Positions 4,371-57,693 of a DNA stretch of 64,000 nt are shown one piece after another (the stretch's first letter is position 1; the number at the start of each line of letters is the position of its first letter). The notes below the pieces were generated by a model. The model made no database searches. It was not told the origin of the DNA and saw nothing but the letters and a program-made list of their open reading frames with translations. The position numbers and the translations under genes are program-made. This DNA comes from a bacterium (GTDB lineage: Bacteria > Actinomycetota > Thermoleophilia > Solirubrobacterales > 70-9), in assembly GCA_023251935.1 (NCBI GenBank), contig JAHEXV010000001.1, positions 1-64,000 of the forward strand. Reading direction: 5' to 3'.

Positions 4371-5447
4371 GTGGAATCGGCGATCTTGCAGGCGAATCTC
4401 CTTCCCCCCGAGCTGACCGCGATCCGCGCGGTCGGCCTCGGCCTCGCCGTGCTGATCGCCGCCTTCGCGATCTGGCGGCGGCGATCGCTGCGCAACGCCG
4501 ACGTCCTGATCCTGCTCGTGATCGCCCTCGGCTTGGCGATCGTCTCCGGCACCCAGCTCCTCGACACGATCCTCAGCGCCTTCTCGTTCAAGCGCTCCAA
4601 CGGAACCCGGATCGTCGGCGTCGCGGTGTTCGCGATCCTGATCCTGTTCCTGCTCGTCGTCCGCGCCCTCGCGCAGGGATCGCGGATCACCCGCGAGCTC
4701 TCCGAGGTGCTCGAGGGGCTCGCCTGGGAGCAGTTCAAGGCCAGCGGGCACCCGGAGCGGTTCCGGGGCCGGATCGGCGTCCTGGTGCCCGCCTACAACG
4801 AGGCGGAGAGCATCGGCTGGGTGCTCGATCGGATCCCGGCGCGGGTGTGCGACGTCGAAACCGCGGTGCTGGTGGTCGACGACGGCTCGCGCGACGCGAC
4901 CGGCGAGATGGCGGCCGAACGCGGCGCCGTCGTGGCCCGCCACGTGATCAACCGAGGGGGCGGCGCCGCCCTGCGGACCGGCTACCGGCTGCTCGCCGAC
5001 TCGGGGGCGACGGTGGTCGTCACCCTGGACGCGGACGGTCAGCATCTGCCCTCCGAGATGGAGCGCCTCGTCGAGCCAGTCGTCTCGGGGGAGGTCGCGG
5101 TCGCCCACGGGTCCCGCGTGCTGGGCAGGGCTGACCCCAACCACTACTCCCGCGAGCTGGGGATCGTCTTCTTCAACCGAACGGTGTCGTTGATCACCCG
5201 GACCAAGGTCAGCGACTGCTCGAACGGCTACCGGGCCGTGCGCAGCGACGTGCTGCCGCAGCTCGTCCTGCGCCAGGAGCAGTTCCACACCTCGGAGTTC
5301 CTGATCGAGGCGATCAAGCGCGGCATCCCCGCCAAGGAGGTCCCCGTGACGGTCGCGAACCGCCGCCACGGGCACTCGAAGAAGCCCGCCGTCGTCCGCT
5401 ACGGCCTCGGGTTCGCGAACGCGATCGTCCGGACGTGGCTCAGGTGA
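4371..5447 (+). CDS. Membrane-anchored glycosyltransferase family 2 (DUF2304-like N-terminus + DPM1-like GT2)
   Basis: GTG start 4371; N-terminal TM segments, then GVLVPAYNEAESIGWVLDRIPARVCDVETAVLVVDDGSRDATGEMA...VVVTLDADGQHLPSEM...SDCSNGYRAVRSD. Confidence 0.82.
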   Translation: MESAILQANLLPPELTAIRAVGLGLAVLIAAFAIWRRRSLRNADVLILLVIALGLAIVSGTQLLDTILSAFSFKRSNGTRIVGVAVFAILILFLLVVRALAQGSRITRELSEVLEGLAWEQFKASGHPERFRGRIGVLVPAYNEAESIGWVLDRIPARVCDVETAVLVVDDGSRDATGEMAAERGAVVARHVINRGGGAALRTGYRLLADSGATVVVTLDADGQHLPSEMERLVEPVVSGEVAVAHGSRVLGRADPNHYSRELGIVFFNRTVSLITRTKVSDCSNGYRAVRSDVLPQLVLRQEQFHTSEFLIEAIKRGIPAKEVPVTVANRRHGHSKKPAVVRYGLGFANAIVRTWLR

Positions 5448-5448
5448 T

Positions 5449-5628
5449 GGCTGGGTAGGGGAAGGCGATCACGCCCAGGGCCGATTCACGACTCCGCGCG
5501 CCGCCGGGTGCGTTCCGTACGCGAATTCCGCCGAGAGGAACTTTGTGCATGGCATAGGTGCATATGCGTCCCCTCGACTACCTGGACTCCCCAACGCTGG
5601 ACCGCCAGCACCATCCCCTTACCCAGCC
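5449..5628. repeat. Short element bounded by near-perfect terminal inverted repeats GGCTGGGTA(A)GGGGA (MITE-like candidate)
   Basis: GGCTGGGTAGGGGA at 5449-5462 and TCCCCTTACCCAGCC at 5614-5628 (inverted, one extra base); the same 14-mer inverted (TCCCCTACCCAGCC) is at 36325-36338. Confidence 0.5.
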
Positions 5629-5924
5629 TTCTGCGGGCCAGCCGCGCTCGGCTGGCGGACCTCGGAGGGGTCGGGCAGGTAGAGGTCGGTGCCGCAGCGG
5701 GTGCAGACCTGGACGTAGAGCTTGTGGACCTTGCCGCAGCGGGGGCAGCGGCGCTCGGGCTCCTCGGTCTCGCCCCGATAGAAGATCACGGCGACCAGGC
5801 CGATCACCGGCAGGACCGAGCCGACCAGCAGCCAGATGAAGAAGGAGCTGCCCTTGGCGCGCCCGATGATCCCCGTGGCGATCCCAAAGCTGAGCGCGAT
5901 CACTACGTAGGGGGCGCCGGACAT
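5619..5924 (-). CDS. Small membrane protein with C-terminal zinc-ribbon
   Basis: MSGAPYVVIALSFGIATGIIGRAKGSSFFIWLLVGSVLPVIGLVAVIFYRGETEEPERRCPRCGKVHKLYVQVCTRCGTDLY; CPRC-x10-CTRC zinc ribbon. Confidence 0.75.
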   Translation of the reverse strand: MSGAPYVVIALSFGIATGIIGRAKGSSFFIWLLVGSVLPVIGLVAVIFYRGETEEPERRCPRCGKVHKLYVQVCTRCGTDLYLPDPSEVRQPSAAGPQKAG

Positions 5925-36113: not shown

Positions 36114-36226
36114 GAACTGCGGCGGATCGTGTCCGGTGGACGGACGCGACGGGGACGCAGTTCGGATCGCTGGCCGAATTGTGGCGCGGCGTGTCCGGTG
36201 GACGGACGCAACGGGACACGGTTCGG
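36114..36226. repeat. Tandem pair of imperfect hairpin repeats sharing the 19-nt core GTGTCCGGTGGACGGACGC
   Basis: Core at 36129-36147 and 36191-36209; outer arms GAACTGCG/CGCAGTTC (36114-36121/36156-36163) and CCGAATTGTG/CACGGTTCGG (36174-36183/36217-36226, two G.U). Confidence 0.75.
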
Positions 36227-36262
36227 TTGGCGGGCGCGCCCCGGCGCTTTCGCACCATCGAT

Positions 36263-36299
36263 GGCCGAGTTGCGTCGACTAGACGAACGCAACTCGGCC
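36263..36299. repeat. Perfect 13-bp inverted repeat hairpin GGCCGAGTTGCGT-N11-ACGCAACTCGGCC
   Basis: Direct inspection; no U-tract follows. Confidence 0.9.
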
Positions 36300-36384
36300 C
36301 TCGGCGAGGCCTACGCAGCCTCGCTCCCCTACCCAGCCCTAAGCAATTCGATCGCGCTCGTGCCCGTGGCCAGCGCAGCCGCCC

Positions 36385-44958: not shown

Positions 44959-45009
44959 CGAATTGAGTCCCGGTACGTCCGTCCTCCGGACACGAGGGGA
45001 CGCGGTTGG
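44959..45009. repeat. Fourth copy of hairpin repeat family (inverted orientation)
   Basis: GTCCGTCCTCCGGACAC (44977-44993) vs GTCCGTCCACCGGACAC (reverse complement of the 36.1 kb core): 16/17 match; similar flank GGGACTCAATTCG vs GGGACGCAGTTCGG. Confidence 0.7.
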
Positions 45010-45090: not shown

Positions 45091-46161
45091 CTACTGGGCG
45101 CATTCCCAGGCGCTGGCCCCGGAATCCGCCCAGATCTGGGCGGCAACCTGGCTCTGCTGCTGCGGCGAGGCGTCCTGGGGCGCCCCGCTGCCTCCGTACA
45201 GGCGCCAGGTCGAGGGCAGGATCTGGTAGGCCCCACCGGCCCCCGAGGAGGGGTTGACCGCGTTGAAGTTGCCGCCCGACTCGCACATCACGATCGCCTG
45301 CGGGATCGCCCATTGGCCGACCCAACTGGAGACCGTCTGCTGCGCCTGGGCGGCGGCGGCCTGCTGGCTTTGCTGCGCCTGGATCTGCTGAAGCTGCGTG
45401 ACCTGCTGCTCCCACCCCGCGACTTGTGAGCGCAGGCTCGAGGCCGCGGCCGCCTCCTGCTGGCGGGCCTGGTCGAGCTGGGCCGCCTGGGCCTCGGCGT
45501 TGGCCCGGACCGAGGCGATCTGGTCGCGGGCGGTGGCGATGCGCTGATTGAACGCGATCTGCTCGGCCCTCGCCTGCCGGACCTGGGTGAGCTGGGCCGC
45601 GACCACGTTGCGCAGCTGGCGCACGCGGGCGGCGAGCGACGCGTCCGCGTCCTCGATTCGGCCGACCAGCTCCGCCCGGTTGGCGAGATCGTCGAAGCCC
45701 CTGGCGCTGAGCAGCAGCTCGGTCAGGTCGGGCGCGTCGCCCTGGTAGATCGAGACCAACCGTTGCGACAGGGCCGTCAGCGCGCGGCGCAAGCTGGCCC
45801 GAGCCCTGGCCAGCCGCGCCTGGGTCTGCGCGACTCGGGCCTCGAGCTCGGCCTGGCGCTGCTCGCCCTGCGCGAGCACGCCCGAGAGCTGGGCCTCTCG
45901 TTGGGCGGCCGCCGCGGCCTGCTGGCGCGCCGCCGCGACCTGGCCCGCCTTGGCGTCGATGTCCGCCGCCAGGCTCTGTGCCTGCGACTGGGCGGAGGAG
46001 ATCTGCGAGTTGAGCTCGGTGACGCTCTGCGCACCGGCGCTGGCGGCCGCGAGGGCCAGGACCGCGCCCGCCGCGAGAGCTGCGAGCAGCATGACGACGC
46101 CCCCCCGAAACCTGGCCGGGCGGCGACCACTGGGCGAACGCGTGTAGCTCTTCGACTCCAT
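45091..46161 (-). CDS. Coiled-coil cell-wall protein with C-terminal Rpf/transglycosylase-like domain
   Basis: Signal peptide; coiled-coil (LNSQISSAQSQAQSLAADIDAKAGQ...); C-term WAIPQAIVMCESGGNFNAVNPSSGAGGAYQILPSTWRLYGGSGAPQDASPQQQSQVAAQIWADSGASAWECA. Confidence 0.85.
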   Translation of the reverse strand: MESKSYTRSPSGRRPARFRGGVVMLLAALAAGAVLALAAASAGAQSVTELNSQISSAQSQAQSLAADIDAKAGQVAAARQQAAAAAQREAQLSGVLAQGEQRQAELEARVAQTQARLARARASLRRALTALSQRLVSIYQGDAPDLTELLLSARGFDDLANRAELVGRIEDADASLAARVRQLRNVVAAQLTQVRQARAEQIAFNQRIATARDQIASVRANAEAQAAQLDQARQQEAAAASSLRSQVAGWEQQVTQLQQIQAQQSQQAAAAQAQQTVSSWVGQWAIPQAIVMCESGGNFNAVNPSSGAGGAYQILPSTWRLYGGSGAPQDASPQQQSQVAAQIWADSGASAWECAQ

Positions 46162-46162
46162 C

Positions 46163-46340
46163 CTTCGTATGCCTACGGGGTTAGCTGTCGGGCTCGCGCC
46201 GAAGGACTGGCGCTACGCGGCGGTGGCCGCGATTCGCCCCCGGGGCATCTCCGCGTCAGCGGTGCCTGGCCCCAGCGGTTCCCCCGCTCCCTCGGGATGG
46301 GCCCAAAGGATTCGGCGGTGAAAGGCGAGCGGCATCCTAG
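46163..46340 (-). ncRNA. Cyclic di-AMP riboswitch (ydaO/yuaA leader)
   Basis: Minus strand: CGCCGAATCC...GGGAGCGGGGGAACCGCTGGGG...CTTCGGCGCGAGCCCGACAGCTAACCCCGTAGGCATACGAAGGATGG matches the remembered consensus CCGAAUCC..GGGGGAACC..GGGG...CCGUCAGCUAACCUCGUAGGCGU..; ends just before the ATG of an Rpf-like gene, the classic actinobacterial context. Confidence 0.88.
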
Positions 46341-57594: not shown

Positions 57595-57693
57595 CTGGAA
57601 CGTCGTTCACGGCCGACAGGACACTTGAGCACCTATACGGTGCGGAACGTTCCTCTCGTCGGAGCCGAGACGCCCGCGGCCTGGTCCCACCTG

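What the first reader, a model, noticed from the sequence alone, without database searches (positions are those of the whole stretch)
5449..5628. MITE/REP-like element with inverted ends GGCTGGGTA(A)GGGGA, related to a block at 36.26-36.34 kb
GGCTGGGTAGGGGA (5449-5462) recurs inverted at 5614-5628 (one extra A) and as an exact 14-mer inverted at 36325-36338. Read inward from the end, both loci share the same order: 14-mer end, then a small hairpin (GGCG-ATCA-CGCC at 5.46 kb; GCGAGGC-N7-GCCTCGC at 36.3 kb), then AGGGCCGA, then a TGCGTTC-containing inverted repeat. No ORF explains the block. The right end overlaps the TAA stop of the zinc-ribbon gene and the left end starts 1 nt after the GT2 stop, as expected for an element tolerated between genes. 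Being a mobile element is inference.
Basis: partly seen in the sequence, partly recalled or inferred. Interest (0 to 1): 0.62.

Follow-up and report, generated by a model that had tools for sequence, protein, structure and literature searches.

The report
Lineage-specific intergenic palindromic repeat elements
The block is one copy of a small non-coding repeat with matching inverted ends around a hairpin; it has multiplied between genes in this soil bacterium's genome and, in an altered form, in one sister species, but is missing from the same gene junctions in close relatives, so it behaves like a miniature mobile element of a known general sort but of an undescribed family.

Summary
GGCTGGGTAGGGGA (up to 1 mismatch) occurs 27 times in this 2.49 Mb Solirubrobacterales-like MAG (reversed control: 1) and is not amplified in 60 relatives. 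Nearly all copies are intergenic, often just after a stop codon. Many face an inverted copy about 100-180 nt inward, with a strong hairpin between. Ends and hairpins are conserved; the arms between them are not. Hairpins fall into at least six classes (A-F). Five junctions carrying the element are syntenic in same-genus species that lack it. One same-genus species has its own set: a diverged end GGGCAAGTAGGGGA (22 copies, control 1), mostly different stems, same layout. No target-site duplication, autonomous partner or Y1 transposase was found in the carriers, both incomplete genomes. Best reading: non-autonomous, probably mobile intergenic palindromes of the REPIN/ERIC type that may also act as mRNA 3'-end hairpins. 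New variant of a known kind; mover and function are inferred.

The parts
5449..5462 (+). left end motif T of the element, exact GGCTGGGTAGGGGA
5532..5576 (+). class D hairpin core (CGAGAGGAACTTTGTGCATGGCATAGGTGCATATGCGTCCCCTCG)
   Evidence: shared with window 57615-57658 and with L060, L073 and L265 elsewhere in the genome
5614..5628 (-). inverted right end, GGCTGGGTAAGGGGA (one extra A)
   Evidence: overlaps the stop of the zinc-ribbon ORF
5449..5628 (.). whole T..T' element between convergent GT2 and zinc-ribbon genes
   Evidence: absent from the syntenic junction in G003 (L157) and more distant genomes; fold z -4.3
36325..36338 (-). end motif T of the second element, exact
36259..36303 (.). 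class B hairpin core (CGATGGCCGAGTTGCGTCGACTAGACGAACGCAACTCGGCCCTCG)
   Evidence: one of about 33 class B palindromic sites in the genome
36114..36215 (.). two class F palindromic repeats next to the class B hairpin (direct repeat, 36114-36153 and 36176-36215)
57615..57658 (-). lone class D hairpin without recognisable T ends

Best explanation
The block is a copy of a non-autonomous, probably mobile, intergenic palindromic repeat. The unit is an end motif with core GTAGGGGA, a variable arm, a strong class-specific hairpin, a second variable arm and the inverted end motif; copies missing one end are common. It spreads by an unidentified enzyme acting in trans on the ends and/or the hairpin, without duplicating its target, and is kept mostly just after stop codons, where, when transcribed, it folds into a stem-loop that probably ends or protects mRNA 3' ends. 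Shown: copy number, inverted ends, hairpins, intergenic bias, absence at five syntenic junctions, and a diverged counterpart set in one sister species. Inferred: mobility as the cause, the unknown enzyme, any effect on RNA.
For: 27 copies vs 1 in the reversed control; not amplified in 60 relatives, and the exact motif at most once in any other of 232 genomes of the order. Inverted end inward 7 of 26 vs 1 outward; strong palindrome inward 14 vs 2 outward; the same in G003, 6 of 22 vs 0 and 8 vs 0 (pooled p 8e-4 and 2e-6). Five syntenic junctions lack the element in same-genus genomes. G003 has 22 copies of the diverged end GGGCAAGTAGGGGA with the same layout. Only 1 of 27 ends lies inside a called gene; 13 of the 14 with an outer neighbour within 60 nt abut that gene's 3' end.
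Against: No mover found: no Y1 transposase in G000 or G003, no IS with these ends. The same-genus relatives are only about 70-90% identical in protein, so the empty sites do not give base-exact insertion points and loss in the relatives is not excluded. Arms are not copied along with ends and hairpins, which is unusual for recent transposition. G003 has other sequence of similar length at two of the junctions. The function at mRNA 3' ends has no expression evidence.
Confidence: 0.6

Rival explanations
1. They are primarily functional 3'-end hairpins (transcription terminators or mRNA stabilisers) kept by selection; copies share sequence through recombination or gene conversion rather than transposition.
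For: Placement after stop codons and enrichment of class B between convergent genes, 13 of 27 vs 15 of 168 other regions (p 4e-6). At the same GT2 junction some relatives have unrelated hairpins of their own, one of them single-copy.
Against: No U-tract terminator at the window element. Some class B copies lie between divergent genes (4 of 27). Inverted T ends around unrelated hairpins, and the switch of the end motif between sister species, are not explained.
Confidence: 0.2
2. True REPINs: REP doublets moved by a RAYT (Y1) transposase that was lost or is missing from the incomplete assemblies.
For: GTAG core in both end variants; paired inverted ends with a variable, hairpin-forming spacer, as described for REPINs (PMC3116915); no target duplication.
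Against: No Y1_Tnp in G000 (84% complete) or G003 (72% complete), while G002, which has one, lacks the T-ended elements. No palindrome directly beside GTAG.
Confidence: 0.14
3. Conventional MITEs derived from a DDE insertion sequence with these terminal inverted repeats.
For: Inverted ends, 100-180 nt size, multiple intergenic copies, absence at orthologous junctions.
Against: No target-site duplication of 3-9 nt in any of 14 two-ended copies; interiors not homologous between classes; no full-length IS with these ends seen among the listed places.
Confidence: 0.06

Closest known systems
REPINs / REP-BIME elements with RAYT transposases (PMC3116915, PMC8266576, PMC3733652)
   Same: Short conserved inverted ends with GTAG, variable spacer able to form a hairpin, intergenic and mostly downstream of genes, lineage-specific sequence, no target duplication.
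   Different: Here GTAG is inside a 14-nt end with no palindrome directly beside it; the central hairpins are separate, interchangeable families; no Y1/RAYT gene found in the carriers; tens rather than hundreds of T copies.
ERIC / RU, Correia (NEMIS) and YPAL elements (PMC2229807)
   Same: Non-coding intergenic elements of about 100-180 nt that fold into long stem-loops.
   Different: As reviewed there most carry a terminal TA and duplicate their target (YPAL lacks the TA but still duplicates); here there is no duplication, and only the ends and hairpins are conserved, not the whole unit.
BOX elements of pneumococcus (PMC3049150; modular anatomy from own knowledge)
   Same: Modular: conserved outer parts with inner modules, folding into a stem-loop.
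   Different: BOX uses one A-B-C module series; here unrelated hairpin classes share one end motif.

Membership tests
REPIN/REP | palindrome directly preceded by the tetranucleotide GTAG | tested here: not met
   GTAG is in the end motif, but the 34 nt after it fold no better than shuffled sequence
REPIN/REP | two conserved inverted ends around a variable, hairpin-forming spacer | tested here: met
   about a quarter of T copies keep a recognisable inverted partner
REPIN/REP | RAYT (Y1) transposase in the genome | tested here: inconclusive
   none in G000 (84% complete) or G003 (72% complete)
MITE (DDE-type) | target-site duplication | tested here: not met
   no perfect duplication of 3-9 nt in 14 two-ended copies, no excess over permuted flanks
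MITE (DDE-type) | autonomous element with the same terminal repeats | tested here: inconclusive
   no suitable end pair among the 27 listed places, assembly 84% complete in 114 contigs
mobile element in general | empty sites at orthologous positions | tested here: met
   five junctions in same-genus genomes; not base-exact because of divergence
intrinsic terminator | GC-rich hairpin followed by a T-run | tested here: not met
   0 terminator-like sites in window 5300-5800; other copies not scanned with that tool
known structured RNA | match to an Rfam family | tested here: not met
   only a c-di-AMP riboswitch at 46155-46327 in the window

The most novel reading that the evidence does not exclude
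A modular mobile system in which one end motif (core GTAGGGGA) packages interchangeable ssDNA hairpin cores, many with a TAT/ATA apex, and moves them without target duplication through an enzyme other than a known HUH/Y1 transposase, the end motif being rewritten between sister species.
Probability: 0.15. Interest if true: 0.65.

Novelty: new variant of a known kind. Interest (0 to 1): 0.42.

Why it matters
It gives a poorly known, mostly uncultured actinobacterial order a clear case of species-specific REP/ERIC-like repeats. Two sister species share one layout with different ends, a third (G002) has one of the hairpin types without the ends, and a fourth (G001) shows neither in the part sampled: a natural series for asking what moves such repeats and how the ends and the recognising enzyme change together. 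It also warns against reading these hairpins as gene-specific regulators.

Tried and rejected
Shared interior order between the two window loci: rejected, different hairpin classes (D and B) and no conserved hairpin next to the end. Whole element as one long covarying hairpin: own left and right arms pair no better than arms of different copies (p 0.57). Class B as a strongly covarying RNA: mostly conserved sequence on both arms, only a modest excess of pairing (492 of 588 cells vs 471, sd 5, in permutations). RAYT partner: not found. Viral origin: no hit for the two-ended pattern in viral contigs. Idea that unrelated hairpins at the same junction in other genomes are multicopy too: the L163 hairpin is single-copy; a second hand-made pattern for L167/L170 failed even on its own source and says nothing. 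Literature searches found no description in Solirubrobacterales; the library holds open-licence papers only.

Full report
CHECK. GGCTGGGTAGGGGA lies at 5449-5462, inverted with one extra A at 5614-5628, and exactly inverted at 36325-36338. The left end begins one nucleotide after the stop of a GT2 glycosyltransferase and the right end overlaps the stop of a convergent small zinc-ribbon protein. In the window alone the 14-mer is only mildly over-represented, but in the whole assembly (G000, 2,485,352 bases, 84% complete) it has 27 places at up to one mismatch, 11 of them exact, against 1 for the reversed control.

DISTRIBUTION. In 60 relatives the same pattern has 0-5 hits, about the level of the control, and in 232 genomes of the order the exact motif occurs 11 times here and at most once elsewhere. 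Titles of related records place the organism in Solirubrobacterales.

ANATOMY. About 0.63 Mb of the genome was read, biased on purpose to contigs with copies. Two-ended copies read: end T, a variable arm, a strong hairpin, a variable arm, inverted T, in all 103-180 nt. An inverted end (at least 11 of 14) lies inward in 7 of 26 copies and outward in 1; a strong palindrome lies inward in 14 and outward in 2. In 351 intergenic regions there are 44 strong palindromes and none after shuffling. Many belong to recurring classes: A (GAAGCCTTTGGTACC..), B (CCGAGTTGCG..), C (TTGTCGCCTTACTCGG..), D (CGAGAGGAACGTT..), E (GTGGCGCGTTTGTGGCG..), and F (GTGTCCGGTGGACGGACGC). Class B is the largest, about 33 palindromic sites genome-wide, and occurs with or without T ends. 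The 5.45 kb element carries class D; the 36.3 kb one carries class B beside two class F units and has no recognisable second end; a lone class D hairpin sits at 57615-57658. Arms show no excess complementarity, and the first bases inside the end form no conserved hairpin, so only ends and hairpins look constrained.

PLACEMENT. One of 27 ends lies inside a called gene. Of the 14 whose outer neighbour is within 60 nt, 13 lie at that gene's 3' end. Class B hairpins sit between convergent genes in 13 of 27 cases, against 15 of 168 other intergenic regions of at least 100 nt (p 4e-6), and T ends avoid divergent pairs (p 6e-4). Gene calls come from a simple codon-usage script and single placements can be wrong.

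SITES WITHOUT THE ELEMENT. The GT2/zinc-ribbon junction is kept in same-genus G003 (L157) and in several more distant genomes without the element. Four further junctions are syntenic in same-genus species: infB/DUF503 is short in G001 and G002; the junction before pheA is short in G001, G002 and G003; ABC permease/hemB is short in G002; nadE/thioesterase nearly abuts in G002 and G003. G003 has other sequence of similar length at infB/DUF503 and at hemB; the latter includes a short counterpart, GGGCAAGTAGGGGA..CCCCTTACCCAGCC.

SISTER SPECIES. That variant end has 22 copies in G003 (control 1), 4 in G000 and at most 3 elsewhere. Its copies repeat the layout, with inverted right ends such as CCTACTTGCCC, and mostly different stems; the inward partner is seen in 6 of 22 vs 0 outward, palindromes in 8 vs 0. 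Both end variants share GTAGGGGA. Many hairpins in G000, G002 and G003 have a TAT/ATA apex (classes B, D, E and several in G003), but classes C and F do not. Class E-type hairpins also occur in G002, without T ends; in the 0.22 Mb of G001 sampled neither was seen.

MECHANISM. Lineage-specific amplification, a diverged set in one sister species and element-free syntenic sites are what a non-autonomous mobile repeat gives. Lack of a target duplication argues against DDE transposition. REPIN-style single-strand movement would fit the paired GTAG ends, but no Y1 gene is found in either carrier, so the mover is open. Placement after stop codons and hairpin strength suggest a secondary role at mRNA 3' ends; there is no U-tract at the window copy and no RNA evidence.

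COMPARISON. REPINs share paired conserved ends and a variable hairpin-forming spacer (PMC3116915), and REPs lie mainly downstream of genes (PMC3733652). The REP definition, a palindrome directly preceded by GTAG (PMC8266576), is not met. ERIC/Correia-type elements share size and placement but mostly duplicate the target (PMC2229807). I therefore call this a new variant of a known kind, not a member of a named family.

Noticed in passing
window 46155-46327 (-): c-di-AMP riboswitch (ydaO/yuaA leader, RF00379), 69 bits, the only Rfam hit in the window.
   Followed up: no
window 36114-36153, 36176-36215 and 44975-44993; L139:9398: Class F palindromic repeat GTGTCCGGTGGACGGACGC: three copies in the window and one elsewhere in the sampled genome.
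   Followed up: partly
L279:14770, L281:8261, L286:15373, L287:13488, L289:18112, L292:7935 (G002); L058:6336 and L141:8066 (G000); L297:15379 and L252 (G003): A hairpin with a five-base ATA/TAT loop (TGGCG.GTTTGTGGCG-CATAG-CGCCACAAA..CGCCA type) recurs in three species of the genus with different stems; every such hairpin found was intergenic.
   Followed up: partly
L275:1315-1878 (G002): A Y1 (IS200-like) transposase ORF in same-genus G002, which lacks the T-ended elements.
   Followed up: partly
L157 and L163, just downstream of the GT2 gene: Relatives have unrelated hairpins of their own at the same convergent junction; the one in L163 is single-copy in its genome.
   Followed up: partly
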